A stretch of DNA of 64,000 bases, taken from the NCBI RefSeq assembly GCF_030345075.1, contig NZ_CP128361.1, positions 6,262,001 through 6,326,000 of the forward strand, in the 5' to 3' direction. This DNA is from Solwaraspora sp. WMMA2065 (GTDB lineage Bacteria; Actinomycetota; Actinomycetes; Mycobacteriales; Micromonosporaceae). The position numbers and the translations under genes are program-made. The notes beneath the pieces are model-generated. The model did no database searches, was not told the origin of the DNA, and saw only the letters and a list, made by a program, of their open reading frames with translations. Every line of letters begins with the position of its first letter. The first letter of the stretch is position 1. Below, piece by piece: positions 2,931-19,647 of the stretch.

Positions 2931-3095
2931 CGGGTCGCTGCCGGCTGCTGCCCGGGGTCAGTCCCGCAACCACCTTGACGGACCGGCGGAGCCTGCCCGA
3001 TCGGTATCGAACAGATACTTTCCGGCCGATGCCGTGTCGGCCCGAGCATGGATAGGCTCTGGCGTTCTACATCGGTCGTACCCCTGTGGAGAGTT

Positions 3096-6000
3096 GTGGA
3101 TCATCAACGAATCCGGCGTCTCGCCAACCAGTCCGCCAACTTCGGGTTCCTTGTGGATCATGGATTGCTGGTCTGGTACGGCGTCGGCGCCGAGTCGTTG
3201 ATCTACGTGGACGCCCAGTCGTCGATGTTCAAGGCGCGGGCGTTCGGCGACACTCTCGCCCGTGAGCTGGTGAATCGCACCGGCACCAAGGCCAGCAGTG
3301 ACAGGTTCGTCGACCAGGTGCAGGCACTCAACGCCAACGGCGTACTCACGCCGAAGATCAACGAGGCGTTCACCCGGCTGCGCAAGGTCGGCAACCAGGC
3401 CGTGCACGACCACCTCGACCAGGTACGGACCGCGCTGGAGCTGCTGCGCGACTGCTTCGAGCTGGGGGTGTGGTTCCACCGGGCGTTGACCGACGACCGC
3501 CGCCCGATCGGTTTCGTGCCGCCCAGCCCGCCACCGCAGCAGGTGCCACAGCACATCGTCGTCGGCCTGCAGGCCGAGCTGGACCGCTACCGCCAGGAGC
3601 TGGCCGAGGCGAAACTTCTGCTCGACGGACAGCCGTCGGTGGCGGCGGCGCAGGCTGCGGCGGAAGCCGCTGCCGACCGGGCAGTCACCGAGTCGGCGGC
3701 CCGCCGTACGGTCGCCGCCGAGCTGGTCGCGGACCTGGAGCCGCAGATGACGGTGGCCAGTGCGGAGTTCGCCGCCCGTGCGCCGGCGAAGGTGTCGGCG
3801 GCGAAACGCGAGGCGTTCATCAGCCGCGCCCGGCGCGCGTCGGCCGAGCCGCTCAACGAGGTGCAGACCCGGGTCGAGATCGACCGGCAGCTCATCGCCG
3901 CCGGCTGGCAGGTCCAGGACGAAACCCAGATCAATCTGTACGCGGGGACCGGGGTCGCCGGTGTCGCCGTACGGGAGGTCACCCTGGCCACCGGCCGGGC
4001 CGACTACCTGCTCTACGTACAGCAGAAACTGGTCGGGGTGATCGAAGCCAAGCGGGAAGGCACCGCGCCGCGTGGGGTGGAGGCGCAGCTGGACCGCTAC
4101 CTGCGCGGGCTGACCCGCGAGCAGCGAATCTCCGCCTGGCGGCGGGACGCGCCGCTGCCGTTCGGCTACGTCGCCACCGGCACCGAGACGGCGTTCGTCA
4201 ACGGGCTGGACCCGCAGCCGCGTACCCGGGAGGTTTTCGCCTTTCACCAGCCGGAGACGCTCGCGCGCTGGATGCGCGAGGCCGACGACGACCCGGCGGC
4301 CCCGACGCTGCGGGCCCGGCTGCGGCAACTTCCGCCGCTTGCGGAGGAGGGGCTGCGCCAAGCCCAGATCGACGCGGTACGCGGCCTCGAAGGCGCGCTG
4401 GCCGCAGACAAGCCTAGGTCGCTGATCCAGATGGCGACCGGTGCGGGGAAGACGTTCATGGCGGTGACCAGCAGCTACCGGCTGCTGCACCACGCCAAGG
4501 CAGTCCGCATTCTGTTCCTGGTCGACCGCAACAACCTGGGCCGGCAGACGCTGCGCGAGTACGCCGGCTACGCCACGCCGGGGGACGGGCGCAAGTTCAC
4601 CGAGTTGTTCAACGTGGACCGGCTGGCCGGGGCCGGCATGCTCGGCTCGTCGGCGGTGGTGATCTCCACGATCCAGCGGCTCTACGGCGCGTTGGCCGGG
4701 CGGGAGCTGCCGGACGTCGACGTCGACGACCAGGCGTACGACAGCTATGACCTGGATGAACCGGCGCAGGTCGCCTACAACCCGGCTATCCCACCGGAAG
4801 CGTTTGATCTCATCATTGTGGACGAATGCCACCGGTCGATCTACGGCAAGTGGCGGGCGGTGCTCGAGTACTTCGACGCCTTCATGGTCGGGCTGACCGC
4901 CACGCCGGTGAAGCAGACCCTCGGCTTCTTCCGACAAAATCTGGTCTCGGAGTACACCTACGAGCAGGCGGTCGCCGACGGGGTCAACGTCGGCTTCGAC
5001 GTCTACCGGATCCGCACCGAGATCACCGACGCCGGCTCGACCATCGAGGCGAAGACGGTGGTGCCGCTGCGCGACCGGCGCACCCGCGCCGAGCGCTACC
5101 AGGAGCTGGAGGAGGACTTCAGCTACGTCGGTAAGGACGTCGGCCGCACGGTGATCTCCCGTGGCCAGCTGAAACTGGTGCTGGAGACCTTCCGGGACCG
5201 ACTCTTCACCGAGATCTTCCCCGGCCGCACGACCGTACCCAAGACGTTGATCTTCGCTCGGGACGACAACCACGCCGAAGAGATCGTCACCATGGTCCGC
5301 GACGTCTTCGGCCGCGGCAACGACTTCGCCACCAAGATCACGTACGCGTCGCGGCGCACCGGCGACAACCCCGACGAGCTGATCCAGGCGCTGCGCAACA
5401 GCCCGGAGCTGCGGATCGCCGTCACCGTCGACATGATCGCCACCGGCACCGACGTCCGGCCGCTGGAATGCCTGCTGTTCCTGCGCCCGGTCCGCACGGC
5501 GACCTACTTCGAGCAGATGAAAGGCCGGGGCGCCCGCACCATCGACGCCGCCGACTTCCAGGCCGTCACCCCGGACGCCCAGGTCAAGGACCGGTTCGTC
5601 ATCGTCGACGCGGTCGGCGTCACCGAGCAGGAGTTGGACGAGGCGGTGCCGCTGCACCGGCGCACCGAAGCACAGATCTCACTGCGCGAACTCCTCGGCA
5701 AAGCCGGCACCCTCACCGCCGACCAGGACGAGGTCGCCACCCTGGCCGCCCGACTGGCCCGGCTAGACCGCCAACTCACCGACGACGAACGCGCCGAGCT
5801 GACCGACCTCGCCGACGGCCAACCCCTGGCCGCAATCGCCCGCCGACTCACCGACGCCGTCGCCCCCGAATCGCTGATTCCCGCGCACGAGGCCGGCCCC
5901 GACGCGGTACGCGACCTGCTCGCCGAAGCGCTCCGGCCGCTGGCCGCCGCACCGGAGCTGCGGCACCGCATCCTGGAGATCCGCCGCGCCCACGACATCA

Positions 6001-6599
6001 CCATCGACGAGGTCAACCGGGACACGCTGCTGTCCGCCGCCGGGGTGCCGGCCGCCGAACGGGCGCAGAAGGTCGTCCGCAGCTGGCACGCCTACCTCGA
6101 AGAACACCGCGACGAGATCACCGCGCTGCAGGTCTTCTTCGACGGCAAAGGCCGGGTCGACTTCGACCAGCTCAAAGAGCTGGCCGCGCGGATCTCCCGA
6201 CCACCGCAGGCGTGGACGCCGGACCGGCTGTGGGAGGCGTACGTGCTGCTCGGCCGCACCGCCGAAGCCCCCGGCGACCGGGGCGTCACCGACCTGATCA
6301 CCCTCGTGCGCTACGAGCTCGGCCTCGACCAGGAGCTGCGCCCGTACCGGTCGGTCGTCGAAGAACGCTTCCAAGGTTGGCTGCTGCGCCAGGAGCAGGC
6401 CGGCGCAGCCTTCACCCCCGAGCAAGTCTGGTGGCTGGAAAGGATCAAGAACGTGATAGCGGCAAGCGTTGCCGTCACCCCCGACGACCTGGACGGCGCC
6501 CCGTTCACCGAACGCGGCGGCATCGACGGGTACGTCCAGACCTTCGGTGCCCAGGCCGAACCCCTCATCACCGAACTCAACCAGGAACTCACCGCATGA
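3096..6599 (+). CDS. hsdR: Type I restriction enzyme subunit R (HsdR)
   Basis: ATP-dependent translocase and nuclease subunit of a type I restriction complex. From the GTG chosen (GGAG four bases upstream) it has about 1167 residues. An N-terminal DUF4145-like helical region (NFGFL near residue 14, conserved VGNQAVHDHL) is followed by a coiled region. A PD-(D/E)XK nuclease follows, with RADYLLY near 301 and EAK near 315. The SF2 helicase core has Walker A ATGAGKTF near 446, DECH near 575 and GLTATP near 597, then the helicase C lobe and an EcoEI-type C-terminal domain. ATG 3048 is an alternative start adding 16 residues. The stop overlaps the hsdS start (ATGA). All motifs look intact. Confidence 0.93.
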   Translation: MDHQRIRRLANQSANFGFLVDHGLLVWYGVGAESLIYVDAQSSMFKARAFGDTLARELVNRTGTKASSDRFVDQVQALNANGVLTPKINEAFTRLRKVGNQAVHDHLDQVRTALELLRDCFELGVWFHRALTDDRRPIGFVPPSPPPQQVPQHIVVGLQAELDRYRQELAEAKLLLDGQPSVAAAQAAAEAAADRAVTESAARRTVAAELVADLEPQMTVASAEFAARAPAKVSAAKREAFISRARRASAEPLNEVQTRVEIDRQLIAAGWQVQDETQINLYAGTGVAGVAVREVTLATGRADYLLYVQQKLVGVIEAKREGTAPRGVEAQLDRYLRGLTREQRISAWRRDAPLPFGYVATGTETAFVNGLDPQPRTREVFAFHQPETLARWMREADDDPAAPTLRARLRQLPPLAEEGLRQAQIDAVRGLEGALAADKPRSLIQMATGAGKTFMAVTSSYRLLHHAKAVRILFLVDRNNLGRQTLREYAGYATPGDGRKFTELFNVDRLAGAGMLGSSAVVISTIQRLYGALAGRELPDVDVDDQAYDSYDLDEPAQVAYNPAIPPEAFDLIIVDECHRSIYGKWRAVLEYFDAFMVGLTATPVKQTLGFFRQNLVSEYTYEQAVADGVNVGFDVYRIRTEITDAGSTIEAKTVVPLRDRRTRAERYQELEEDFSYVGKDVGRTVISRGQLKLVLETFRDRLFTEIFPGRTTVPKTLIFARDDNHAEEIVTMVRDVFGRGNDFATKITYASRRTGDNPDELIQALRNSPELRIAVTVDMIATGTDVRPLECLLFLRPVRTATYFEQMKGRGARTIDAADFQAVTPDAQVKDRFVIVDAVGVTEQELDEAVPLHRRTEAQISLRELLGKAGTLTADQDEVATLAARLARLDRQLTDDERAELTDLADGQPLAAIARRLTDAVAPESLIPAHEAGPDAVRDLLAEALRPLAAAPELRHRILEIRRAHDITIDEVNRDTLLSAAGVPAAERAQKVVRSWHAYLEEHRDEITALQVFFDGKGRVDFDQLKELAARISRPPQAWTPDRLWEAYVLLGRTAEAPGDRGVTDLITLVRYELGLDQELRPYRSVVEERFQGWLLRQEQAGAAFTPEQVWWLERIKNVIAASVAVTPDDLDGAPFTERGGIDGYVQTFGAQAEPLITELNQELTA

Positions 6600-7972
6600 G
6601 CGACCTACCCCCCGGCTGGGAATGGGCGACCCTTGGCGAGGTCGCTGACATCAGGGGTGGCATCCAAAAGCAAGCAAAACGGCGTCCGGTCGAAAACAAG
6701 TACCCATTTCTCCGTGTCGCCAACGTGCTCAGGGGGCAGCTCAACCTGTCCGAGATCCACGAGGTTGAACTCTTCGAAGGTGAGCTCGACCGCTATAGGC
6801 TGCAGCGAGGGGACTTGCTTGTTGTCGAGGGCAACGGGAGCCCGGATCAGATTGGCCGAGCCGCGCTCTGGGACGGAAGTATCATCGACTGCGTCCACCA
6901 GAATCATCTGATCTGCGTCCGTCCGTCTCCGGCTGTACTGCCTGAGTATCTTGAGTATGCGTGGAACTCTCCGACTGTTTCGGCTTACGTTCGATCAGTC
7001 GCGGGTTCCACCAGCGGGCTGTACACACTAAGTGTGGGCAAGCTGAGAAGCGTGGTACTACCGGTTCCGCCACTCGCTGAGCAGCGCCGCATCGTCGCGG
7101 CCGTCGAGAAGGAACTTTCACGGTTGGAAGCGGGGAAAGGATACTTGCAGCGAGCAGCGGCACGTCGGCTGCCATTGCGTAGGTCACGGTTGATGGCGCT
7201 TCGCGAGGAGGCGCTCCTTGCGGGTGCCGTTCAGCTTCCTCTAGGGGAATTGGCTGATACGAGCCTGGGAAAGATGCTCGACGCGAAGCGTTCTACTGGC
7301 GAGCTGTCGCCGTACCTTCGGAACATCAATGTTCGCTGGGGTTCTGTGGACCTCACCAACGTCGAGCGCGTGCCGCTGGGGAGCCGCGAGCGGACCAGGT
7401 TCGCGTTGCAGGCAGGCGACCTGCTGGTCTGCGAGGGTGGTGAGCCGGGACGCTGTGCCGTTTGGCGAGACTCACGAGAGATGGCCTACCAAAAGGCTCT
7501 GCACCGCGTTCGAGTCACTGAGCGAGTTCTGGTGGACTGGGTAGCGTTGATGCTTGAGGAGTCCGTCCGGAACGGCCGGATCAACAAGCTCCTTACGGGA
7601 ACTACTATCAAGCACCTTCCTCAAGAGAAGCTGCGAATCATCACCATCCCTGTCCCTGATTTGGAGTATCAGCGTAGCGCCATTTCGCGTTCCGCCGAAC
7701 TGGATGTGAGCCTCGGAGAGGTAGAGCAGTCAATAGCCCACGCCGATCGGCGGGCGGGGCGGCTTCGTGAGGCGTTGCTGGTGGAGGCATTTGCGGGGCG
7801 GTTGGTGGAGCAGGAACCGGCGGATGAGCCGGCGTCGGAGTTGCTGGCACGCATTCGGGCGCAACGGGTGGTGGTGCCGAAGCAGCGAGGGCGGCGTACG
7901 GCCAAGGAGCTGGCTGCGCCCGCGACCAGGGCGATTGGGACCGATTTTCAGCAGGGAGAGTTGCCGCTGTGA
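6596..7972 (+). CDS. hsdS: Type I restriction specificity subunit S (HsdS)
   Basis: DNA sequence-recognition subunit, 458 residues. Two target recognition domains are each followed by a conserved helical spacer. The first begins MSDLPPGWEWATLGEVADI and ends in the typical PPLAEQRRIVAAVE near residue 160. The second runs from about 210 (QLPLGELADTSLGKML) to a spacer near 370, followed by EALLVEAFAGRLVEQEP, which is typical of HsdS C-termini. It overlaps hsdR by ATGA and hsdM by GTGA, so the three are translationally coupled. Codon use in the recognition domains is clearly less GC-biased than in hsdR or hsdM, which suggests specificity exchange by transfer or recombination (inference). The R-S-M order is less common than M-S-R or R-M-S. 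Confidence 0.92.
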   Translation: MSDLPPGWEWATLGEVADIRGGIQKQAKRRPVENKYPFLRVANVLRGQLNLSEIHEVELFEGELDRYRLQRGDLLVVEGNGSPDQIGRAALWDGSIIDCVHQNHLICVRPSPAVLPEYLEYAWNSPTVSAYVRSVAGSTSGLYTLSVGKLRSVVLPVPPLAEQRRIVAAVEKELSRLEAGKGYLQRAAARRLPLRRSRLMALREEALLAGAVQLPLGELADTSLGKMLDAKRSTGELSPYLRNINVRWGSVDLTNVERVPLGSRERTRFALQAGDLLVCEGGEPGRCAVWRDSREMAYQKALHRVRVTERVLVDWVALMLEESVRNGRINKLLTGTTIKHLPQEKLRIITIPVPDLEYQRSAISRSAELDVSLGEVEQSIAHADRRAGRLREALLVEAFAGRLVEQEPADEPASELLARIRAQRVVVPKQRGRRTAKELAAPATRAIGTDFQQGELPL

Positions 7973-9519
7973 GCAACGTGGATTCGCGCCGGCTGGTGCA
8001 GAAGCTGTGGAACTACTGCGACGTGCTGCGCGACGACGGGGTTTCCACGATCGACTACGTGGAGCAGCTGACGTACCTGCTGTTCTTGAAGATGGCCCAC
8101 GAACGGGCCAACCGGCCGCTCAAGCCGGAGCAGATCGTGCCGGCGGACCTGAGCTGGCAGACGTTGCTCGACAGCGACGGTGTCCGGCTAGAAGTGCAGT
8201 ACCGCAACATCCTCAGCGGCCTCGGGCAGGAGTCCGGCACGCTCGGCACGATCTTCCGCAAGGCGCAGAACAAGATCCAGGACCCTGCGAAGCTCAAGAA
8301 GCTGATCGTCGACCTGATCGACAAGGAGCAGTGGTCGCAGGCCGGCGTCGACGTCAAGGGCGACGCGTACGAGGAACTGCTGGCCAAGGGCGCGGAGGAT
8401 GCCAAGTCGGGTGCCGGGCAGTACTTCACGCCGCGTGCGCTGATCGAGGCGATCGTCGACTGCGTGCAGCCGACCCCGGGCGACACGATCACCGACCCGG
8501 CGTGCGGCACGGGTGGGTTCCTGCTGTCGGCGTACGACCATATCCAGCGGCACCACGGCGACAGCCTGACCCGCGACCAGGCCCGGCACCTGGCCAACGG
8601 TGGGATCACCGGCACCGAGCTGGTCGACGGCACCGCGCGGCTCGCCGCCATGAACATGCTGCTGCACGGCATTGGTACGGCGAGCGGCCCGTCGCTGATC
8701 GACGTCCGCGACTCGCTCGGGCGGGAGCCGTCGAGCAAGGTCAGCCTGGTGCTGGCCAACCCGCCGTTCGGGCGTAGCTCGTCGATCCGCATGATCGGTG
8801 AGGACGGGCGGGCCAGCCGCGAGGAGCGGGAGATCGAGCGCGCCGACTTCTGGGCGACGACGTCGAACAAGCAGCTCAACTTCGTGCAGCACATCGCTTC
8901 GATGCTGGAGATCGACGGGCGGGCCGCGGTGGTGCTGCCCGACAACGTGCTCTTCGAGGGCGGGGCGGGGGAGACGATCCGGCGGCGGCTGCTCAAGCAG
9001 TACGACCTGCACACCATGCTGCGGCTGCCGACCGGCATCTTCTACGCCGGTGGGGTCAAGGCCAACGTGCTGTTCTTCGAGCGCAAGCGCGCCCGGGAGG
9101 AGCCGTGGACCAGCAAGCACTGGGTGTACGACTTCCGCACCAACCAGCACTTCACCCTTAAGCAGAACCCGCTGCGGCGGGAGCATCTGGAGGAGTTCGT
9201 CAGGGACTGCTACCTGCCGGGCAAGGATCGGGCCGAGCGGGTGGAGAGCGAGCGGTTCCGAGCGTACGACTACGACGAGTTGCTGAGCCGGGACAAAGTC
9301 AACCTGGACATCACCTGGCTGAAGGACGCCTCGCTGGAGGACGCCGACGCACTGCTGCCACCCGAGGTCATCGCCCAGGAGATCGTCGAAGACCTACAAG
9401 CCGCCCTACGCGAGTTCGCCGCCATCGCCGACGCGCTCACGAGTCGCGCTGCAGTGAATGCGCTACCTTTGCAGAAGTCGGAGTCAAGAGTTCCTGATGC
9501 AAATACTACTTTGCAGTAG
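7969..9519 (+). CDS. hsdM: Type I DNA methyltransferase subunit M (HsdM)
   Basis: N6-adenine methyltransferase subunit, 516 residues, GTG start overlapping the hsdS stop. The HsdM N-terminal helical domain (VQKLWNYCDVLRDDG, YLLFLKM) is followed by the N6_Mtase domain. SAM motif I DPACGTGGF lies near residue 176 and catalytic motif IV NPPFG near 264. The stretch AGQYFTP before motif I is also typical. It methylates the host sites that HsdS recognises and protects them from HsdR. The last 30 or so residues (from TSRAAVNALPLQ) lie in DNA that already shows the lower GC of the downstream module, so the C-terminal tail may be a junction product (inference). Confidence 0.93.
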   Translation: MSNVDSRRLVQKLWNYCDVLRDDGVSTIDYVEQLTYLLFLKMAHERANRPLKPEQIVPADLSWQTLLDSDGVRLEVQYRNILSGLGQESGTLGTIFRKAQNKIQDPAKLKKLIVDLIDKEQWSQAGVDVKGDAYEELLAKGAEDAKSGAGQYFTPRALIEAIVDCVQPTPGDTITDPACGTGGFLLSAYDHIQRHHGDSLTRDQARHLANGGITGTELVDGTARLAAMNMLLHGIGTASGPSLIDVRDSLGREPSSKVSLVLANPPFGRSSSIRMIGEDGRASREEREIERADFWATTSNKQLNFVQHIASMLEIDGRAAVVLPDNVLFEGGAGETIRRRLLKQYDLHTMLRLPTGIFYAGGVKANVLFFERKRAREEPWTSKHWVYDFRTNQHFTLKQNPLRREHLEEFVRDCYLPGKDRAERVESERFRAYDYDELLSRDKVNLDITWLKDASLEDADALLPPEVIAQEIVEDLQAALREFAAIADALTSRAAVNALPLQKSESRVPDANTTLQ

Positions 9520-9686
9520 AGTGGAAAGAATGCGGTGCCCACTCCAGACGGGAGTGCGCTCTCTCTGCAAAGATCCGGTTTCTGGTGCCTTGTTGGTTGT
9601 GGTTAGTCTGACAAGCCTCTCCGACAATCCAAGAACAGTCCGGCTATGCGGGAATTATATCCTGCGGCCAAACCGAGGAGTGCCAA

Positions 9687-12600
9687 ATGCCCCCAACGCT
9701 GGTTAATGGTAGATTTGTACTGACCGACGAGTCGCCAAAACGGGGTGGCTTGTCAGAGGTGCGGAAGGCGTTCGACAGTGCAAGTGGCGGGTTCGTCGCG
9801 GTCAAGATGCTTAACTCGCCTACGGGTGACGGCGTCATCGAGATTTTCTTGCAGCGGGAGACGGAGACACTCGGAAAGCTGCAGCACAAAAACATCGTCC
9901 GCTTGCTAGACTCCGGATGGAGCGCAGAGCTCGGCAAGTACTTTATGGCCCTGGAGTGGATCGACCGTAGTCTGAAGGACGAACTTGACGCAGGACGCGT
10001 TTACGAGTGGCAAGAGTACTTTGACAAGATTGGCCTTCCGCTCGCAAATGCGTTGAGTTTTGCACACGCAAAGGAAATTGAGCATCGGGATGTCAAGCCA
10101 GGAAATGTGCTGCTTGATCCCGAAGGTGAGGTAAAGCTTGCGGACTTTGGAATTGCAAAGATTCGTTCAAAAATGACGGATCCGGACCGGACTGTTTCCG
10201 GCTTCCGGTCTGGCTTGTACGCACCTCCCGAAATGGATGATTCGGTTCCTTATGTGCGCGACATATTTGCATTCGGGGTACTTGCGGTCAAGGTGCTTGC
10301 GTCGCGTGAGGTCGCAAGTTACGCAGACCTTGAGCCGGCGCTAAATAGTCTCGTAGTCGTGCCAAACGAGATTCGTGATGTCCTGTGGAATTGTGTCGCC
10401 CTCGATCCAAGTGATCGCTTCAAAAATGCTGCAGTGCTGAACCAGAAGCTGACGGATGCTTACCAAATTTTCCGGCAACGGACCTCTCGTAAGAATAACG
10501 TTCTTTGGCTTGGGATGACCCGTGCCGCCGCTGGTGCGATCCTGCGCGTTGAAAAGGAGAAGGTTGACCAAAGGCGGGCTGAGGCTGATGTCCTCAACGA
10601 TTTGGGTGATGTATTGCACATCGATTATGGATACGACGCAAGAAGTCGGCAAGTCGACCGCGATGTGATCGTTCTTGCCGGCAAGTCCATGATGCTGCGC
10701 GTTGTGCAGGACCACGAGTATGACGACCGGGCGCGGATCGTGAGTGCTAGTGTCAGAGACGAGGAGTGGCTACGGCGATGGCGAGAGAAAGCTGTCGATT
10801 TCAGCCGACTTCTGACTCTCCGTTTCGATGATCCGGGCGAGGCGGCGGCCAGTGCAGGCATCGATTTTGTGCTTGATCGCTTGGACGAGGATCAGTCAAA
10901 TAAACGTGCTGCAGCCGAGAGTTCGGCAGAGAACGGGGACAAGATTGGTGACCTGTATGAAAAATGGCGCAGGCTGCTGGAAGCGCGCGAAGTCCTTGCC
11001 CGTGGTGCCCGGAAGCCAATTGTCTATAGGGGAATTACTCAGCGTGGCCGAAAAATCATTTTTCATCTGACCGAACCTCATGAGATTTCCCTGATGGGGG
11101 AGGAATGGGAGGTGGCCCACTCACCTCAGGGCTATTCCGTCGATCGTGGCGAGGTGATTGAGCAAACAGATGACGGCATACGCATCCAGTTCCGGAAGCA
11201 GACAAATAGGGTTCCCCGAAACGGCGTCCTGGTGCCGTACCTAGGACCGAGCAAGGTCGCCCTGCAGCGGCAGCAGGAGGCACTCGTCAACGTCCGTACC
11301 GGCCAGACAGCGAACCCACGACTGGGGCAGATCATCCAGGATCCGATCTCTCTACAGGCAGGAACGCCAGTCGAGGTCACGGAGTGGTCGCGCGGTAACC
11401 TTGATCAGAGCAAGCAGCAGGTGGTCCGGCACGCTTTGGGGACACAGGATCTCTTGCTTATCCAAGGACCGCCTGGTACCGGCAAAACGACGGTCATCGT
11501 TGAAATCGTGCGGCAGACGATTAGGCGACAGCCGAACGCCCGGATCCTAATAGTCAGCCAAACCCATATCGCAGTCGACAATGCGCTGGAGCGCTTGGAA
11601 TCGGCTGGCGTTGAGGGCCTCGTACGGCTTGGACGTCCGGACGATCCTAGAGTTTCCGGGGATGTTCGACATCTGTTAATCGACGGTCGGATCAAGAAGT
11701 GGTCACGTGGTATACGGGCAAAGGCTGCCGCATACTTAAAGCAGATCGCATCCGCTCAAGGGCTTAATTCCCGTCATCTCGAAGCCGCCTTGCTGTTGGA
11801 AGAGTTGGCAGCGATTCAATCAGATGCGAGTCACGTGCGGGAAGTCGTTGCTCGTCTGGAGTCTTCGATAACCGGTGATAAGACTAGTGCAACGAGAAAC
11901 GCTGCTGGCGATCTGATTAACGCTCGGGAGCGGTTGGAGCGGCTGCAGGAGAAGTCCGACGAGCTGATGGTGGATATCCAAGTTCTCCTTGATGGAGCAC
12001 TTACGCTTCCAGCCCGACCTAATGCCTCCGTGGCGCGCTCTGCTATCGGCGCGCTGCTTGGTGATGCACCCACAGCACATAATCTGATGAACCTTCTCAG
12101 ATTGCAGGGAGAGTGGCTACAACGCATCGATACCGACATGAAGCTAGTAACCGCGTATTTGCGTACCACAAATGTTGTTGGTGGTACGGCGCTTGGATTC
12201 CTCAGCCATCCTGCTGCGCGTGAGTTGGATTTTGATCTGTGCATCTTCGACGAGGCATCGAAAGCTACTGCGACCGAGGCTCTGGTACCACTTGCTCGAG
12301 CTCGGCAGTGGATCCTGGTGGGAGACACCAACCAACTGCCGCCGATGGACGAAGACCTGTTGCGGGAGCCTCGATTGATAGACGAGTTCGGACTCACCGA
12401 GGAGCTGATCAAGACAACGCTATTTCAGTACCTATCAGATCGGACTGCAGCGCCAATCCGGCACATGCTCACCGAGCAGTACCGCATGACGCCTGCAATT
12501 GGGAACCTTGTCTCAACTTGCTTTTATCAGGGCGAGCTCGTTTCGCCGAACCGCCACCTGCTGAAGGGCTACGATTGGCTCAACAAGCCGGTGCTCTGGA

Positions 12601-13115
12601 TTAACACGCGTTCGCTAGGTGAGGCGCGGCGCGAGTCAATACGTAGCTTTGGAAATACGAGCGTCGCCAATCCGGCTGAGGCGAGTCAGGTGATCGCAGC
12701 GCTTGAGGTGATGAATCGGGCGGTCGATCTGCACATGGTCGAACCGGGCGGAGATAGGCTCAATATTCTCGTGATTGCGCCATACGGGCGCCAGGTGGAG
12801 GACCTTCGAAGGCGAGTCGCGGGCATGCGTCCGACGCATCTGATCGTCGAAGTTCTGTCTGTCGATGCGGTGCAAGGGAGGGAGTGCGATATTGCAATCT
12901 TCTCCGTCACGCGCAGCAACGAACGCGGGGAATTCGGATTCATCGGCGAGCACTACTGGCGGCGAATAAACGTTGCGCTCTCTCGTGCCCGTTTTGGTCT
13001 GATCGTCATCGGGGACGCCGAATTTTGCCGAGGTAAGCCGGGTGCGCTGCGTGATGTCCTATATTATATCAGCGAGCACCCAGAGGAGTGTGGTATCCGT
13101 GATGCAGGCAACTAG
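9687..13115 (+). CDS. mkoA: Ser/Thr protein kinase fused to SF1 (Upf1-like) helicase; MkoA-like
   Basis: A 1142-residue fusion. Residues 1 to about 270 are a Hanks-type kinase with an intact-looking core: VAVKML lysine, HRDVKPGN near 133, ADFGIAK near 152 and a YAPPE activation-segment end. A middle region of about 300 residues has no recognised domain. The C-terminal half is an SF1 helicase of the COG1112/Upf1 type: GPPGTGKTT near 595, IFDEAS near 852, GDTNQLPPM near 878, EQYRM near 928, VQGREC near 1061 and NVALSRAR near 1096. GAGGAG sits six bases before the ATG. Together with the PLD gene overlapping its end, this is the composition reported for type I Mokosh antiphage systems. The mechanism is unknown; RNA or RNA-DNA sensing is inference. 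GC is low for the window. Confidence 0.88.
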   Translation: MPPTLVNGRFVLTDESPKRGGLSEVRKAFDSASGGFVAVKMLNSPTGDGVIEIFLQRETETLGKLQHKNIVRLLDSGWSAELGKYFMALEWIDRSLKDELDAGRVYEWQEYFDKIGLPLANALSFAHAKEIEHRDVKPGNVLLDPEGEVKLADFGIAKIRSKMTDPDRTVSGFRSGLYAPPEMDDSVPYVRDIFAFGVLAVKVLASREVASYADLEPALNSLVVVPNEIRDVLWNCVALDPSDRFKNAAVLNQKLTDAYQIFRQRTSRKNNVLWLGMTRAAAGAILRVEKEKVDQRRAEADVLNDLGDVLHIDYGYDARSRQVDRDVIVLAGKSMMLRVVQDHEYDDRARIVSASVRDEEWLRRWREKAVDFSRLLTLRFDDPGEAAASAGIDFVLDRLDEDQSNKRAAAESSAENGDKIGDLYEKWRRLLEAREVLARGARKPIVYRGITQRGRKIIFHLTEPHEISLMGEEWEVAHSPQGYSVDRGEVIEQTDDGIRIQFRKQTNRVPRNGVLVPYLGPSKVALQRQQEALVNVRTGQTANPRLGQIIQDPISLQAGTPVEVTEWSRGNLDQSKQQVVRHALGTQDLLLIQGPPGTGKTTVIVEIVRQTIRRQPNARILIVSQTHIAVDNALERLESAGVEGLVRLGRPDDPRVSGDVRHLLIDGRIKKWSRGIRAKAAAYLKQIASAQGLNSRHLEAALLLEELAAIQSDASHVREVVARLESSITGDKTSATRNAAGDLINARERLERLQEKSDELMVDIQVLLDGALTLPARPNASVARSAIGALLGDAPTAHNLMNLLRLQGEWLQRIDTDMKLVTAYLRTTNVVGGTALGFLSHPAARELDFDLCIFDEASKATATEALVPLARARQWILVGDTNQLPPMDEDLLREPRLIDEFGLTEELIKTTLFQYLSDRTAAPIRHMLTEQYRMTPAIGNLVSTCFYQGELVSPNRHLLKGYDWLNKPVLWINTRSLGEARRESIRSFGNTSVANPAEASQVIAALEVMNRAVDLHMVEPGGDRLNILVIAPYGRQVEDLRRRVAGMRPTHLIVEVLSVDAVQGRECDIAIFSVTRSNERGEFGFIGEHYWRRINVALSRARFGLIVIGDAEFCRGKPGALRDVLYYISEHPEECGIRDAGN

Positions 13116-14472
13116 CAGTCCAGACAACCAGTTGGCGTTGCGGTTCCAGGGAAGTCGTCCCGGTTGGGACCTGGTCGCTATTGTCGATGCGGCCATTCCT
13201 GTCACTCTAGTCAGCGCGGATGTGCTCGCCCAGGATAGGAAGAAGCTACCGCCACTAGACGAATTTATCCTCCGATTTCTTGCTGCAGACGTTGTAACTG
13301 TCGAAGACCTCACCGGTCTCCTAGGCCTTCCGGAAGCTATTGTCACTGACGCCATCGCCGGCCAATTGTCGTCTGACAACATCGCCTACCGTCACCACCT
13401 AAATCGAAAGACGCTGGCGCTCACTGGTCGCGGTCGGGTTACGGCCCGGGAACTTGCGTCGGTGAGCCCTGTGAACGTAGAGCTTCCGTTGATTTTCGAC
13501 CGGCTACTCTGGCGAATTCGGCCGTATGACGATGGTCAGACAATATCCCGAAGTGAGGCCCAGCGAGATGATGTCGTCATCCTTCCGGAGTTGCGGCCAC
13601 ATAAAGTGGCGACGACGGATATAACCGCGGCGGAGATTAATTCGATTCTCCAGACTGATGGGCTAGCGGAGCGCGAGGTGCTGGTTGTCAAGGGGGTTCG
13701 GCAGCGACCCGCAAAGCGCTTTATGTCGGCAAAGTTGATGGTCTTTGCGGACGCGTCGCGAGAGGAAGTGCAGCTAGCTGTCGTTGTGGACGACGAACTC
13801 AGCCAAGAGCATGAGATGGCTTTGCTGAGTTTAGGCGGCGCATCGAGGATTGGGATCAAGGCCGAGCCTGCTGAGCCAAGACCGTTGCTCTCGGATGAGT
13901 TGGAGAGCTTACGTGTCCCGCTGGAAGAAGTGACGCGGCAGCAGGCGGAGTCTCTATCCGATGGCCAGCGCGACGAAGTGGCTCTTCCGGTGGACATGCC
14001 GGAGGTCCGTGGGATCGGAGTCGTTGAGCATCCCGGCCTTTTGGATGAGGCGCTGACTCAAGCATCACGCCGTGTTCTTATCGTGTCGCCTTGGATCAAG
14101 AGGAATGTCGTCAACACCTCTTTTCTTGGGAAGCTCGAGCAGCGACTACGACGAAATGTTTCAGTGCATATTGCGTACGGGATCGACCCAGGGGATCCAG
14201 AATGTCACGAGGACGCCGTGCGCAAGCTGTCGAACCTCGCGGGACGATATCCCGATCGGTTCACCTTCACTAGGTTGCGCAGGACGCATGCCAAGGTGCT
14301 TATTTATGATGACGTATGGATTACAACAAGTTTCAACTGGCTTTCGTTCCAGGGATCGGCGGACCGCACCTATCGGATGGAAGAGGGCACGCTCGTGCGA
14401 AGCAAGGAACTAGTTGATGAAAATTACCAGAAGTACTTAAGCTTGATTGCGCAACACCGCCTCACTGCGTGA
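13102..14472 (+). CDS. mkoB: Phospholipase-D-fold nuclease; MkoB-like
   Basis: About 456 residues. The C-terminal portion carries one HKD-type motif, HAKVLIYDDVWITTSFNW near residue 395, preceded by VLIVSPWIKRNVV, the usual PLD beta-strand. A single HKD motif implies a dimeric active site (family knowledge). The first 250 residues show no motif that I know; residues 50 to 110 may be a winged-helix-like segment. The start overlaps the end of the kinase-helicase gene, so the two are co-translated. I chose ATG 13102 (GAGGAG upstream); GTG 13099 or 13090 are also possible. It is the likely effector nuclease of the module. Low GC matches its partner and not the flanking SDR gene. Confidence 0.85.
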   Translation: MQATSSPDNQLALRFQGSRPGWDLVAIVDAAIPVTLVSADVLAQDRKKLPPLDEFILRFLAADVVTVEDLTGLLGLPEAIVTDAIAGQLSSDNIAYRHHLNRKTLALTGRGRVTARELASVSPVNVELPLIFDRLLWRIRPYDDGQTISRSEAQRDDVVILPELRPHKVATTDITAAEINSILQTDGLAEREVLVVKGVRQRPAKRFMSAKLMVFADASREEVQLAVVVDDELSQEHEMALLSLGGASRIGIKAEPAEPRPLLSDELESLRVPLEEVTRQQAESLSDGQRDEVALPVDMPEVRGIGVVEHPGLLDEALTQASRRVLIVSPWIKRNVVNTSFLGKLEQRLRRNVSVHIAYGIDPGDPECHEDAVRKLSNLAGRYPDRFTFTRLRRTHAKVLIYDDVWITTSFNWLSFQGSADRTYRMEEGTLVRSKELVDENYQKYLSLIAQHRLTA

Positions 14473-14559
14473 CTTGGTGTGGGATGGTCGTGGTATGGGC
14501 CTGCCCTCGATCGACTCCTAGTTTGTTCCGGGATTGTGCGGATTCCGATTTGTGGGGTT

Positions 14560-15378
14560 CTATCGTGTTCCTGAGAAAAGGTTGGGGCGTTGACCCTGTT
14601 CACCAGGTGAGTGGGTTGCGGTTGTGAAGAGTCGGCCGGTGTGTCCGTGGCCGGGCAGTGTGGCCAGCCAGGTGAGTGTTTCGGCTGCTTCGTCGGGGGT
14701 GTGGTTGGCTTTGCCGTAGGGGAGGCGGGTGTTGCCCTTCCCTGGCGAGGCGGCGTTGACGAGGATGTTGTGGTCGTGTAGCTCAGCCGCGAGGATCTGG
14801 GTGAGTGCGTTGACGCCCGCCTTGGAGACTCGGTAGGAGACGCTGCCGGTCCCCATCTCGGCGGACGTGCCCATGTGGCTGGTGACATTGACGATCCGGC
14901 CGTACCCGTTTCGCTTCATCTCCGGGATGGCGGCGGTGCAGCAGCGCCAGGTGCCGATGAGGTTCGCGTCGAGGGTCGCGGTGACCTTTTCCATGTCGAC
15001 TGCGCTGGCTGCCTGGCCTCGGTCGATGGCGATGGCGGCGTTGTTGACCAGGACGTCGAGTCGGCCGTACTGGTAGCCGATGTCGGCCATGGCGCGGGCG
15101 ACGCTGGCGGGGTCGGTGATGTCGAGCTGGTGGCCCGAGACCGGCAGGCCGAGTCCGGTCAGCTCGGCGGCTGTCCGTTCTGCGGCTTCCTCGCTTCTGG
15201 CGGTGACGACGACGTGGAGGCCGGCCTGGGCGAGCTGTTGGGCGATTGCTCGGCCGAGCCCTCGGTTGGCTCCGGTGACCACCGCTACCCGCTGGAGTGC
15301 CGAGGCTGCGCCGGCATCTGCTGCTGCCTGCGTGGCCTGAGGACTGCTACCGGTGGGTTGGTCAGTCACGGTGGGCAC
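14560..15378 (-). CDS. Short-chain dehydrogenase/reductase
   Basis: Classical SDR of 272 residues with an NAD(P)-binding TGANRGLG near residue 35, NNAAI, and the catalytic Tyr-x3-Lys in YRVSK with a preceding Ser in NVTSHMG. It reduces or oxidises a carbonyl/alcohol; the substrate cannot be told. The ending HSPGEQGQRPNLFSG is unusual. The GTG start lies inside what would be the original C-terminus of the SLOG-like gene upstream; GTG 15369 is an alternative that would overlap that reading frame's original stop as GTGACTGA. High GC, unlike the converging defence module, so the island ends between 14472 and 14560. Confidence 0.85.
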   Translation of the reverse strand: MPTVTDQPTGSSPQATQAAADAGAASALQRVAVVTGANRGLGRAIAQQLAQAGLHVVVTARSEEAAERTAAELTGLGLPVSGHQLDITDPASVARAMADIGYQYGRLDVLVNNAAIAIDRGQAASAVDMEKVTATLDANLIGTWRCCTAAIPEMKRNGYGRIVNVTSHMGTSAEMGTGSVSYRVSKAGVNALTQILAAELHDHNILVNAASPGKGNTRLPYGKANHTPDEAAETLTWLATLPGHGHTGRLFTTATHSPGEQGQRPNLFSGTR

Positions 15379-15433
15379 CGGGCGGCCAGATGATGTTCAC
15401 AGGGACGCCGCGAGACTTGGCGTAGGCGACGGC

Positions 15434-15835
15434 CTAGGCGGTGCCGCCGTAGCTTCGGGCGGGCATACCGTCCCAGACGGCGAAGAGCCGATCCGATTGG
15501 TCGACCATCAACTCGCTTGCCGCCATGTGGGCATCCGAGTCGGAGACCCGGTAGTCGCATCGGTGGACCTTCGCGGCCTGACTGATCAACTTGTCGTACG
15601 CGGCGTGGGCGTGCTCGGGCAGGCCGTCGCGGTACTCCTGTGCAGGGACGACAACTTCAAGCCGACCGCCGCACCGGAGCACCGCTTCAGCGAAGAGTTG
15701 ATCTGCCCCGTCAGCGAGGCAGGTGACGCCAACGAGGTCGTCGGTCAACTGCGCGAGTTGCACACCGAGGGCTCGCGCGACAAAGCCGCTGACCTCGTCG
15801 CTGAGCCCTCGATGTCCGGTGATCGCTATCCGCAT
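15434..15835 (-). CDS. SLOG-like Rossmann nucleotide-binding protein, truncated by amber codon
   Basis: A 133-residue protein starting MRIAITGHRGLS, the pattern of the SLOG/DprA-like superfamily of nucleotide or nucleotide-derived ligand binders (beta strand, GHRG loop, CLADGADQLFAEAVL, VVVPA). It ends at TAG 15436-15434 after ARSYGGTA. Past the TAG the same frame continues for 22 more residues with family-like sequence (AVAYAKSRGVPVNIIWPPG) to TGA 15364-15362. The stop therefore looks like a point mutation removing the last strand of the fold. The original length would have been about 157 residues, overlapping the next gene's start. Whether the short product is stable is unknown. SLOG proteins often act in stress or defence signalling (family knowledge); no effector partner is visible. 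Confidence 0.7.
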   Translation of the reverse strand: MRIAITGHRGLSDEVSGFVARALGVQLAQLTDDLVGVTCLADGADQLFAEAVLRCGGRLEVVVPAQEYRDGLPEHAHAAYDKLISQAAKVHRCDYRVSDSDAHMAASELMVDQSDRLFAVWDGMPARSYGGTA

Positions 15836-15845
15836 GGATGCCAAG

Positions 15846-16037
15846 TCAGTGCTTGGTGCTGACCTCGGCGATGAACGACTGCCAGGCAGCCGTCGCGAAG
15901 GCCAGGGTGCCGCTGTCGCGGTCCTTGCTGTCGCGGACGAGCACGCGACCGGGGACGTTGGCGGCCACCTCCACGCACTCGCCACCGTTGCTGCTGCTGC
16001 GGGATGATTTGCGCCAGATCGGTTCAACCGTGCTCAT
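15846..16037 (-). CDS. DUF397 protein
   Basis: A 63-residue DUF397 protein: WRKSSRSSSNGGECVEVA, then VLVRDSKD, then a C-terminal WQSFIAEV. These small proteins accompany XRE regulators in actinobacteria and are thought to work as their partners, as in BldB/WhiJ-type systems. It lies 10 bases upstream of the SLOG-like gene on the same strand, so the two are probably co-transcribed. The large XRE regulator starts divergently about 285 bases away. Confidence 0.85.
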   Translation of the reverse strand: MSTVEPIWRKSSRSSSNGGECVEVAANVPGRVLVRDSKDRDSGTLAFATAAWQSFIAEVSTKH

Positions 16038-16322
16038 CGATCATCCTCCGGTTGAGTCTCGCGGCTGCTGGTCGGGGGAGCCTCTGAATCTTCCCACGGA
16101 TCCATCCTGAGTCCAACCGTGAGTGCAACTGCTCCGTGCACCCGCCGCGATCTTGCTTGGCTGCGACAATATTGCGACATGCGTGATCTGGCGCGGGCAG
16201 CGTCAGCTGTGGACAGCGTTGGTATATCGATGGCAGCATCGATCACTGCCGGAGATAGTTCGTACGGGGAAGTGGCAGCGGATATGGCAATCGGTAACGC
16301 CGGTAAGGATCATGAGGTCGGC

Positions 16323-17672
16323 ATGATCAAATCGCAGGTGATCGCCGAAGCGCGGAGAGCGCTGGGACGGCAGCTCGCCGCCTACCGGGAGGCCGCCGGG
16401 CTCATCCAAGAACAACTCGCCCCTTTGATCCACTACGGTCGCAGCACGATCGCCAACGCCGAAACTGGCTATTCGATCTGCAGCCGTACCTTCTGGGAAC
16501 GGTGTGACGCGGAGCTGAACGCGCATGGCGTGCTGCTCCGCAGCTACGACGAGTTCAAAGCACTCACGCGCGGACAGCGAGCTGCGGCCGCCGAGCAGGT
16601 GAAGGATGACCGGCTCGCCAAGCTGCGGCGGTTGCAAGATCATTCGAGTGGGACCTCCGGCGTTGGCACGGTAGGCGAACCATCCGATGTGCCTCTCCAG
16701 CGGATACCGGAGCCCTCGTCGTTCGCCGAGAGCCGGCCGGACGAGCCCTGGGGCCGTCTCGCGTACTTCATGCAGCATCCAGATCAACTGGACGAGCCCA
16801 CCGTCGAACACCTTGAGTGGTACACCTGCGAGATGTTCCGCCGCGAGGAGCACCTGCCGAGCGGAGATCTGACCAGGCACCTGCAAGCGCACATCATGCG
16901 TCTGAATCACCTGCTCACCGGGCCGCCTGTGCGATTCCAGCGCCGGTTGCTGATGGCGGCCGGCGAGGCGCTGGCCCTGGCCGGCTGGCTCGCCTGGGAT
17001 CTGAGGGACTTCGCCGAAGCGGACCGTCTCCTCGGTGCCGCGTCAGATGCGGCGCACCAGGCCGGAGACGGACCGCTGCTCGCCTGTGTCCTGGCCTACC
17101 GCAGCTACGCCGCCGAAGCAGACGGCGACACTGGAAACGCCCGCGAACTGCTCGTCGCGGCCCAGCGCTATGCGCGCAGCCCAGAAAGTGCCACCACGCG
17201 GGCATGGCTGGCAGCACGCGAAGCCGAGATCAACGCCACTCTGACGGACGAGATGCCCGCGCTGCGGGCGCTCGACCGGGCGATGACGGCCTACGATTAC
17301 GCCCGTCCTCACAATGAACGTTCGTGGACCGCCTTCCTGACGCCGACACGTCTGGGCAGCATGTCGATCACCACGCATGCCCGGCTGGACCATGCCGATC
17401 TTGATGCGGTCACGGACTCGGTCATCGCCTCGCTGGAGGCGACAGACTTCAAGAAGGTCATCGTCCTCGCGGACGTGTCCGCTGCGGCTATCCAGCGCGG
17501 ACGTTACGACCAAGGTGCGGCGCTCGGCCACGAGGCTCTTGACCACACAGGAGCAAGGAAGACCCGCCTGATTAGCCAGCGGGTGCACGGCTTGCGTCAG
17601 CTGATCCGGGACAAGTCCGATGTCCCGGCGCTCGCCGAGCTTGACGACCGGCTCCTGACCCACGTGGCGTGA
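16323..17672 (+). CDS. XRE-family regulator with C-terminal TPR-like region
   Basis: About 449 residues. The HTH lies at residues 15 to 70 (ALGRQLAAYREAAG, QLAPLIHYGRSTIANAETG). A linker leads to an Ala-rich helical-repeat region from about 200 to the end (LLGAASDAAHQAGDG, ARELLVAAQRYAR, LDHADLDAVTDSVIASLE), as in actinobacterial TPR-bearing regulators. The ATG at 16323 was chosen because it puts the HTH at the usual distance from the N-terminus; the open frame extends upstream to 16119 without family resemblance. It is divergent from DUF397, with which it probably forms a regulator pair, and converges on cutA with only 4 bases between the stops. Confidence 0.8.
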   Translation: MIKSQVIAEARRALGRQLAAYREAAGLIQEQLAPLIHYGRSTIANAETGYSICSRTFWERCDAELNAHGVLLRSYDEFKALTRGQRAAAAEQVKDDRLAKLRRLQDHSSGTSGVGTVGEPSDVPLQRIPEPSSFAESRPDEPWGRLAYFMQHPDQLDEPTVEHLEWYTCEMFRREEHLPSGDLTRHLQAHIMRLNHLLTGPPVRFQRRLLMAAGEALALAGWLAWDLRDFAEADRLLGAASDAAHQAGDGPLLACVLAYRSYAAEADGDTGNARELLVAAQRYARSPESATTRAWLAAREAEINATLTDEMPALRALDRAMTAYDYARPHNERSWTAFLTPTRLGSMSITTHARLDHADLDAVTDSVIASLEATDFKKVIVLADVSAAAIQRGRYDQGAALGHEALDHTGARKTRLISQRVHGLRQLIRDKSDVPALAELDDRLLTHVA

Positions 17673-17676
17673 ACGT

Positions 17677-18006
17677 TCAGCGCTCCTGCGTCTCGGCGAC
17701 AATCCACTGCAGGTACGGTGCGAATCCGGCGACGATCGGCACACACACGATGCCGGGCACCTCGTAGTTGTGACGCGCCCGGATGTGCTCCTCCAAGTCC
17801 GCGTACCGGGTGATCGTGGTCCTGAACGTCACCCGCCACTCCTCGGCGGCCACCACCTCGCCCTGCCACCTGTAGGTGCTCCTGATCGGGCCGGCGATCT
17901 GAGCGGAAGCAGCCAGCCGCGCCGCGACGGCAGAATCGGCCAGCGCTTCGGCCACCGTACGGGAATCGGTAGCCGTGACGACGTGGCAATGCTGCTGACT
18001 GGACAT
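17677..18006 (-). CDS. cutA: CutA-family divalent ion tolerance protein
   Basis: A 109-residue CutA-like trimeric ferredoxin-fold protein. The pattern is complete: early TATDS segment, AQIAGPIRSTYRWQGEV, EWRVTFRTT, HNYEVPGIVCVPI, then YLQWIVAET. GAGGGAGA precedes the ATG. The family is linked to copper/divalent metal tolerance, but its molecular role is unsettled. It follows the Imm1-like gene on the same strand with about 38 bases between, so the epimerase, Imm1-like and cutA genes look like one transcript. Confidence 0.85.
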   Translation of the reverse strand: MSSQQHCHVVTATDSRTVAEALADSAVAARLAASAQIAGPIRSTYRWQGEVVAAEEWRVTFRTTITRYADLEEHIRARHNYEVPGIVCVPIVAGFAPYLQWIVAETQER

Positions 18007-18043
18007 CGATGGCTCTCCCTCGGGGATCGTCTGGTCGTGACCG

Positions 18044-18451
18044 TCAAGTTGGCAGGGTCGGCGGCGCGCCTCCGGTCTGGAGATATGTGACCGCTGCTGC
18101 GATGGCTGCCTCCGGTCGGAGGCGGAGGTGTTCGGCGGGATACTCCGTGGGGACGCCGCCGAAGTCGAAACTGATGCCACCCGCCGGGGGTCTGACGTCC
18201 GAGGCGGCGAGGTGGTAGCCGTTGTCCGAGATATGGGCGACGAACGCGTGGATGGGGTGGCCGAGTCCGATCTGCAGGCCGGGTGGCAGCTCGTCGGGGT
18301 CAGTGGGTGGCTCGGGGTAGATGGTCACGACAACGGGCTCGGCCCGGTCGTGGATCTCGCGCAGCAGGGAGCCCAAGTCAGCGGCGTCTATTGATGTGGT
18401 GCTGTGGCGCTCCCGGAGGCCGCCCTTGTCGTATGCCCAGTTCACTTTCAT
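18044..18451 (-). CDS. Imm1-like immunity-family protein
   Basis: A 135-residue acidic protein beginning MKVNWAYDKGG. The pattern of a short N-terminal strand, the LLREIHDRAEPVVVTIY segment, a GLGHPIHAFV strand and AGGISFDFGG then EYPAEHLRL fits the Imm1 immunity family seen beside polymorphic toxins and deaminases. No toxin gene is adjacent. The start overlaps the epimerase stop by ATGA. Imm1-like orphans are common in actinobacteria, so a role in toxin neutralisation is only an inference. Confidence 0.55.
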   Translation of the reverse strand: MKVNWAYDKGGLRERHSTTSIDAADLGSLLREIHDRAEPVVVTIYPEPPTDPDELPPGLQIGLGHPIHAFVAHISDNGYHLAASDVRPPAGGISFDFGGVPTEYPAEHLRLRPEAAIAAAVTYLQTGGAPPTLPT

Positions 18452-19491: not shown

Positions 19492-19647
19492 GTCCTCATC
19501 ATGGCGCAGCGACGGATCGACGGCTGATGTGCCTGGACTGTCAGCCGATTGCTGCCGTCAGCGTGACGCCGTAGCCGACAACGAGATCGGGCGAGTTCGC
19601 TCGGTGGGCACGTGATTCGTGTCCGTTCGATCTTGCGGGAGACGACT

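What the first reader, a model, noticed from the sequence alone, without database searches (positions are those of the whole stretch)
3096..14472. Type I RM operon joined to a Mokosh type I-like kinase-helicase/PLD module
hsdR, hsdS and hsdM overlap by 4 bases each; the kinase-SF1 helicase fusion follows after 167 bases and overlaps the PLD gene. Kinase residues (HRDVKPGN, DFG), all SF1 helicase motifs and the HKD motif are intact. A kinase-helicase fusion plus a PLD nuclease is the composition reported for type I Mokosh. Sitting directly behind a complete RM operon in R-S-M order, it could be a combined layered defence in which restriction products or modification state feed the second module (inference).
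Basis: partly seen in the sequence, partly recalled or inferred. Interest (0 to 1): 0.8.

Follow-up and report, generated by a model that had tools for sequence, protein, structure and literature searches.

The report
Swappable defence slot behind restriction operon
A known anti-virus gene pair (Mokosh type I) sits behind an older DNA-restriction operon at a spot where related bacteria carry quite different defence genes, so the pairing looks like one of several exchangeable add-ons rather than a new joint machine.

Summary
In detail: hsdR-hsdS-hsdM overlap by 4 bp each, and 167 bp on lies a kinase-SF1 helicase gene overlapping a PLD gene. PADLOC assigns the pair to Mokosh type I (MkoA 6.7e-227, MkoB 1.2e-74). 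A fixed RM-Mokosh unit is not supported: 0 of 29 MkoA-MkoB loci from genome contigs with at least 5 kb upstream have an hsd gene within 1 kb 5' of mkoA. The RM operon is resident at this site in the genus, and sister species carry other genes in Mokosh's place: DUF6119, a ParA-like ATPase, PIN_8, GmrSD-RAMA. These five slot contents share no blastn similarity and are GC-poor. Over the family, genus included, the slot holds GmrSD (5 loci), AIPR (4), other genes or nothing clear, scattered over the HsdR tree. Window and sister G308 share a nearly identical tract of about 10.8 kb that spans Mokosh and ends inside hsdM; G308 also keeps a second, diverged copy of part of the right flank, so it probably received the segment by recombination. 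Defence genes in type I RM operons are known (PrrC, RloF, TgvAB, DarTG2); Mokosh as cargo and in-place exchange 3' of hsdM look new. Functional coupling is untested.

The parts
3048..6599 (+). hsdR, type I restriction subunit with N-terminal DUF4145 extension (alternative GTG start 3096)
6596..7972 (+). hsdS, specificity subunit (two Methylase_S stretches); 34-39% identical to the HsdS of G304, G306, G308, G309 while HsdM is 97-98%
7969..9519 (+). hsdM, N6-adenine methyltransferase subunit; the part after codon ~493 is not conserved
9442..14590 (.). cargo slot: stretch without counterpart at this site in G304, G306, G307, G309; GC 0.559 against 0.67 in the RM part
9687..13115 (+). mkoA, Ser/Thr kinase-SF1 (AAA_11/AAA_12) helicase, Mokosh type I
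   Evidence: PADLOC PDLC03920 6.7e-227; Pfam
13102..14472 (+). mkoB, PLD-family protein (ORF opens at GTG 13042; ATG 13102 likelier), Mokosh type I
   Evidence: PADLOC PDLC03922 1.2e-74; fold match to Nuc/NucT
14560..15378 (-). short-chain dehydrogenase gene forming the right border; sequence shared with G306, G307, G309 resumes at 14591-14602
9262..20117 (.). tract with 7 differing positions in ~10.86 kb against sister G308; recent recombination tract whose left end lies inside hsdM

Best explanation
A complete Mokosh type I pair (mkoA, mkoB) is the current cargo of an exchangeable slot at the 3' end of a resident type I RM operon. Shown: both systems identified; RM resident without Mokosh in sister species; different, mostly defence-type genes at the same place; near-identical tract shared with G308 that ends inside hsdM. 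Inferred: cargo is exchanged by homologous recombination in conserved flanks (hsdM and downstream genes); the operon gives cargo a ready-made transcription unit; the two systems act as separate layers, type I restriction of unmethylated DNA first, then Mokosh, in which the helicase engages phage nucleic acid, the kinase switches the complex and the PLD subunit cuts.
For: PADLOC and Pfam assignment. G304, G306, G309 have hsdR 91.6-94.4% and hsdM 96.8-98.4% at the same site without Mokosh there and with other genes. The five slots have no mutual blastn match at E<=0.01; GC 0.50-0.56. Swap of GmrSD for AIPR between homologous flanks (L189/L203) and an occupied/empty pair (L200 2.7 kb, L196 18 bp). 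HsdR tree of 27: 12 changes of cargo label, shuffled mean 12.3; GmrSD 5 rows 5 changes, AIPR 4 rows 4. Control: PADLOC at E<=1e-8 finds GmrSD-like models in 5, AIPR-like in 4 and MkoA in 1 of 28 genes behind hsdM; in 24 genes before hsdR only one regulator hit (Csa3). Tract to G308 and second, diverged copy of part of the right flank there.
Against: Half of the surveyed slots hold no large same-strand gene (14 of 28 do, one of them an HTH protein). The HsdM tail is variable also in loci without cargo and similar between some of these (L192/L195/L198; L188/L197), so the conserved-to-variable step in hsdM does not by itself mark a recombination site. DUF6119 and PIN_8 cargos matched no PADLOC model at 0.01, the ParA-like one only weakly. 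hsdS also has low GC3 (0.69). Gene order at operon ends varies anyway, and the upstream control had 24 of 28 genes. No repeat was seen at the one junction inspected, so the exchange mechanism is inferred. Expression is untested; the scan found no promoter or terminator in the gap but covers only sigma-70-type consensus.
Confidence: 0.77

Rival explanations
1. PrrC-like guard: the slot gene is kept silent by or senses the RM complex, and Mokosh is released or activated when a phage inhibits restriction or when RM cuts make DNA ends.
For: PrrC inside EcoprrI works this way (PMC3874165, passage; PMC12707154, passage); cargo recurs in the same operon position and includes families tied to abortive infection or toxic nucleases (AIPR, PIN_8, HEPN-like) (their role here is inferred); no terminator-like site in the gap.
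Against: Mokosh pairs stand without adjacent type I RM in the other loci examined; HsdM tails next to the same cargo family share no motif by eye; cargo families are unrelated, so one common contact to the RM complex is unlikely.
Confidence: 0.15
2. Fixed joint system: RM and Mokosh form one evolved defence unit.
For: Same strand, 167 bp gap; present in sister G308; one Roseivirga contig has hsdR, hsdM, hsdS followed by a Mokosh-like helicase, a PLD gene and CARF genes.
Against: No recurrence in 38 scripted MkoA-MkoB pairs; RM without Mokosh in sisters; the Roseivirga-type helicase was found in 2 of 341 genomes sampled from that order, and in the other one, G613, no HsdR/M/S match at 1e-3 lies in the 20 kb read.
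Confidence: 0.04
3. Plain chance adjacency of two defence systems in a defence island, with no special slot.
For: Defence genes cluster; 4 of 38 Mokosh pairs have hsdM and hsdS 2.9-5.3 kb away in varied orders.
Against: The same position behind hsdM holds defence-type genes repeatedly and swaps in place; the 5' side does not in the genes tested.
Confidence: 0.1

Closest known systems
Mokosh type I (MkoA + MkoB)
   Same: Kinase-SF1 helicase plus PLD protein in overlapping genes; full-length PADLOC match of MkoA
   Different: Sits behind a type I RM operon; no NERD domain among the 25 of 27 Pfam families shown for MkoA, although PMC10952713 lists NERD for Mokosh type I (passage)
EcoprrI with embedded prrC anticodon nuclease
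   Same: Second defence gene within a type I RM operon (PMC3874165, passage; PMC12707154, passage)
   Different: PrrC lies inside the operon and is held by the RM complex; Mokosh lies behind hsdM and no contact is shown
RloF/GmrSD and TgvAB in type I RM loci
   Same: Type I RM loci carrying GmrSD-family genes (PMC4619093, passages; PMC11411939, abstract and sections 5 and 10); the same family is the commonest cargo in this slot
   Different: RloF is described between hsdS and hsdR and TgvAB embedded in the operon; here the site is 3' of hsdM
DarTG2 in the EPEC type I RM island (RptR)
   Different: Other position, other cargo, Gammaproteobacteria
MADS
   Same: HsdM-, HsdS- and kinase-like members: mad2 5.2e-53, mad5 3.3e-32, mad6 6.3e-31
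   Different: Better matches to type I RM and MkoA models; no other mad gene among the families shown for the 9 proteins tested

Membership tests
Mokosh type I | MkoA: kinase fused to AAA_11/AAA_12 SF1 helicase | tested here: met
   PDLC03920 6.7e-227, residues 5-1138 on profile 6-1108 of 1112; Pkinase, AAA_11, AAA_12
Mokosh type I | MkoB: separate PLD-family protein next to mkoA | tested here: met
   PDLC03922 1.2e-74; HAKVLIYD motif; fold match to 1byr
Mokosh type I | NERD domain, listed for type I in PMC10952713 Table 1 | tested here: inconclusive
   Not among the 25 of 27 Pfam families shown; whether all type I members have it is not known to me
Mokosh type I | anti-phage activity | not testable with these tools
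   no experiment
Type I restriction-modification | HsdR, HsdM and HsdS with recognisable domains in one operon | tested here: met
Type I restriction-modification | methylation and restriction activity | not testable with these tools
   no methylome
MADS | full mad gene set (recalled) | tested here: not met
   only mad2/mad5/mad6 similarity, each weaker than the RM or MkoA models (top 25 families shown per protein)
DISARM | drmA/drmB core with drmC PLD (recalled) | tested here: not met
   MkoB has a weak DrmC hit (4.5e-5); no drmA/drmB among the families shown for the 9 proteins
PrrC-type RM-linked effector | effector regulated by the RM complex | not testable with these tools
   needs interaction and infection experiments

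The most novel reading that the evidence does not exclude
The 3' end of this hsdRSM operon family is a plug-in site for second-line effectors (cell-suicidal or modification-sensing) that are expressed with, and perhaps triggered through, the RM enzyme; species swap effectors by recombination anchored in hsdM while also swapping HsdS specificity, so first and second line are reshuffled together in one locus, with Mokosh one of at least six alternatives.
Probability: 0.2. Interest if true: 0.78.

Novelty: new variant of a known kind. Interest (0 to 1): 0.5.

Why it matters
It turns a one-off adjacency into a natural experiment: the same restriction operon in near relatives with Mokosh, GmrSD, AIPR, a PIN_8 protein, DUF6119, a ParA-like gene pair or an empty slot. 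That gives matched loci to test whether restriction and second-line effectors cooperate, and a simple way to look for new effectors (the DUF6119 and ParA-like cargos) behind hsdM. No title or abstract start listed by searches describes Mokosh in a type I RM locus; the four papers holding both terms name Mokosh only in lists or tables (passages). The library lacks most subscription papers, and I did not see the original Mokosh paper.

Tried and rejected
Fixed RM-Mokosh unit: rejected after the neighbourhood survey. MADS and DISARM: rejected on gene set. A cargo-specific HsdM tail as adaptor: tails beside the same cargo family share no motif by eye. Site-specific integration: no recombinase among the slot's two genes, no shared 8-mer at the junction of L200. 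RNA structure in the hsdM-mkoA gap: z 0.08. tRNA as integration site: none in window 1-24000. The Roseivirga locus L102 looked like an independent RM-Mokosh union, but the related module of G613 stands without hsd in the 20 kb read. The family search with the MkoA model matched all 354 genomes because kinase or helicase domains alone pass; only the 19 best non-own places were followed. In the self-check two statements were mended: the L196 gap is 18 bp, not 19, and HsdM tails are not all different; the confidence was lowered from 0.78 to 0.77 for the second.
Full report
OBSERVATION. The window lies in a single-contig 6.74 Mb genome (G000:C1:6262001-6326000). Domain searches support each. MkoA matches the PADLOC MkoA model end to end (6.7e-227) and MkoB its model (1.2e-74). 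The helicase's best NCBIfam match is the IGHMBP2-type model TIGR00376 (1.9e-69, below its cut-off). MkoB's Pfam PLD match is weak (1.8e-4), but an AlphaFold model (mean pLDDT 87.2) finds the PLD nucleases Nuc and NucT, the DNA-binding protein TrmBL2 and, lower down, mouse Zucchini.

IS THE LINKAGE RECURRENT? In the window's family 354 genomes were searched with the MkoA model. The 19 best non-own places were read with 20 kb each. Six carry an MkoA clearly similar to the window's with MkoB beside it: G308, G088, G028, G168, G090, G304. Only G308, of the same genus, has the RM operon in front. In G168 (L054/L187) a broken hsd operon with transposase-like genes (by eye) lies 3' of mkoB. In the other 13 no hsd gene passed the cut-offs. 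Beyond the family, a scan of genome contigs with a MkoA alignment gave 77 loci. Profile searches found 38 MkoA-MkoB pairs (L058 is one more, missed by the script; L081 repeats G088). Twenty-nine have at least 5 kb upstream; none has an hsd gene ending within 1 kb 5' of mkoA. Four of 38 (L069, L082, L093, L099) have hsdM and hsdS 2.9-5.3 kb away, in varied order and strand. On plasmids, 30 of 72,556 records match MkoA; their surroundings were not examined. So Mokosh does not, as a rule, travel with type I RM.

ONE INDEPENDENT CASE. Roseivirga contig L102 has hsdR, then after 1.2 kb hsdM, hsdS, a 141 aa gene, a Mokosh-like helicase without kinase match (MkoA model 3.7e-123 from profile position 314 on), a 433 aa gene, a PLD gene (DrmC-like) and a CARF gene, the last seven overlapping or close. 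Of 341 genomes sampled from that order one other has the helicase at E<=1e-80 (G613), and there no HsdR/M/S profile match at 1e-3 lies in the 20 kb read.

THE RM OPERON STANDS WITHOUT MOKOSH. HsdM homologues at E<=1e-60 occur in 57 of 354 family genomes. In the genus (7 genomes), G304, G306 and G309 have hsdR (91.6, 94.4, 92.0%) and hsdM (98.4, 97.4, 96.8%) at this site, between flanks that share genes with the window, but no Mokosh there; G304 has a different Mokosh elsewhere (G304:C1). G307 keeps a frameshifted hsdM and a scrap of hsdR, and G305 only remnants. HsdS is just 34-39% identical between the window and G304, G306, G308, G309.

A SLOT WITH CHANGING CARGO. In Mokosh's place are: G304, a 548 aa DUF6119/TIGR04141 protein; G306, a ParA-like ATPase plus a 133 aa protein; G307, a PIN_8 protein; G309, a GmrSD-RAMA protein. 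Their GC3 is 0.53-0.60, like mkoA/mkoB (0.60, 0.61), against 0.90 and 0.91 for hsdR and hsdM; hsdS is between, 0.69. The five slot sequences do not match each other (blastn, E<=0.01) and have GC 0.50-0.56, while the RM part has 0.67; in the window GC drops at about 9.5 kb and recovers at about 14.5 kb. DNA similarity to the sisters ends about 70-90 bp before the hsdM stop. In 28 of 29 HsdM copies examined the conserved part ends at or near ...EFAAIA(D/E)AL and a variable tail follows (none found for L194); tails differ between loci with different cargo, but loci without cargo vary too and some of these share tails (L192/L195/L198; L188/L197), so this step alone does not prove a recombination point. 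The right edge is the 3' end of the SDR gene in window, G306, G307 and G309; in G304 and G305 sequence shared with the window resumes only further on, at 15355-15366.

WIDER SURVEY. Forty further regions around HsdM homologues were read; the rest of the 57 genomes were not. In the close clade (HsdM 82% or more: window, G308, four sisters and 25 others, two of which end just behind hsdM) the slot holds GmrSD-RAMA in 5 (L184, L189, L191, L200, L201), AIPR in 4 (L193, L203, L205, L211), Mokosh in 2, PIN_8, DUF6119 and ParA-like in 1 each; the rest have HTH or small genes, opposite-strand genes or nothing clear. On an HsdR tree of 27 rows the cargo labels need 12 changes, no fewer than shuffled labels (mean 12.3; as low in 100 of 200); the five GmrSD rows need 5 changes, the four AIPR rows 4, and firmly supported branches alone force 4 and 4. 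Sister pair L189/L203 has GmrSD in one and AIPR in the other between homologous flanks, and L196 has 18 bp where L200 has 2.7 kb with GmrSD. In a more distant branch four loci (L223-L226) have a HEPN-like gene just behind hsdM (by eye; one tested, Pfam 1.1e-5, just below cut-off).

CONTROL. Of 28 loci, 14 have a same-strand gene of at least 250 aa within 200 bp behind hsdM (one is an HTH protein); before hsdR 5 of 28 do. PADLOC at 1e-8 gives, behind hsdM, GmrSD-like models in 5 of 28, AIPR-like in 4, MkoA in 1, PDC-S04 in 1 and capH (regulator) in 2 (first 25 of 57 families shown); before hsdR, in 24 of those 28 genes, only one Csa3 hit. Pfam agrees: GmrSD 5, AIPR 4, single PIN_8, DUF6119, Fic and PIN behind hsdM (first 25 of 30 families shown), against regulators, metabolic families and one APH-type phosphotransferase before hsdR.

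EXCHANGE BY RECOMBINATION. Window and G308 differ at 7 positions between 9262 and 20117, while 300 bp windows outside this tract are mostly 90-98% identical (an identical patch also lies at 5400-6000 in hsdR, and most of hsdS does not align). Four-fold sites tell the same: SDR 0.000, GNAT gene 0.094, hsdM 0.11-0.12 in its first two quarters and 0.05 in its last two. In G308 the copy that continues the tract to window position 20890 is followed by a second set of the same stretch: window 17587-18459 at 83.9% and 18456-20890 at 91.5%; the window has no such repeat between 14001 and 34000. The simplest reading is that G308 received the Mokosh segment from a relative of the window species, with one crossover in hsdM, and kept part of its own right flank. 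This is how cargo could be exchanged without its own mobility genes; at the L200/L196 junction no repeat was seen.

HOW IT LIKELY WORKS. Inferred from family knowledge: HsdRSM methylates self DNA and cuts unmethylated invaders. MkoA/MkoB form a second line; PMC11291487 describes Mokosh as degrading viral transcripts (passage), a claim not tested here. The place behind hsdM may lend expression. A guard role like PrrC (PMC3874165, passage) cannot be excluded.

AGAINST KNOWN. Type I RM loci with inner or linked defence genes are known: PrrC, RloF/GmrSD (PMC4619093, passages), TgvAB (PMC11411939, abstract and two sections), DarTG2 with the hsdS-hsdR gap called a potential hotspot (PMC12255303, abstract and passages, which also cites a preprint on embedded defences that I have not seen). 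New here as far as the searches reach: Mokosh as cargo, the position 3' of hsdM, and in-place swaps among close relatives.

Noticed in passing
A2 alignment; L049/L081, L057, L072, L075, L080, L082: MkoB lacks the H.K....D motif in 7 of 18 aligned sequences (6 distinct loci) while the pairing with MkoA persists, so PLD catalysis may not be universal in this Mokosh type.
   Followed up: partly
L102:1076-15719: Roseivirga: hsdR, hsdM, hsdS followed by a Mokosh-like helicase without kinase match, a PLD gene and a CARF gene in one run; a related helicase module occurs without hsd in G613.
   Followed up: partly
L050 and L234 (G308), window 17587-20890: G308 carries a second, diverged copy of part of the right flank behind the Mokosh tract, pointing to G308 as the recipient.
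   Followed up: partly
L182:4918-6248: ParA-like ATPase plus a 133 aa protein without Pfam match in the slot of G306: possible undescribed defence pair.
   Followed up: no
L181:6427-8073: DUF6119/TIGR04141 'sporadically distributed' protein in the slot of G304: candidate effector.
   Followed up: no
window:3048-3700: HsdR has an N-terminal DUF4145 extension that also matches PADLOC candidate PDC-M16A (3.9e-17, residues 30-217).
   Followed up: no
window:6596-7972: HsdS is 34-39% identical to its counterparts in four sister species whose HsdM is 97-98%: target specificity is also being exchanged.
   Followed up: partly
window:14560-14620: The 3' end of the SDR gene seems to read in another frame than in relatives, giving a different C-terminus (by eye).
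   Followed up: no
L187, L183: hsd operons decaying: broken up with transposase-like genes in G168; in G307 hsdR largely gone and hsdM frameshifted, yet the slot ORF is open over 515 codons.
   Followed up: partly
L223-L226, just 3' of hsdM: HEPN (RiboL-PSP)-like gene behind hsdM in four more distant RM loci.
   Followed up: partly
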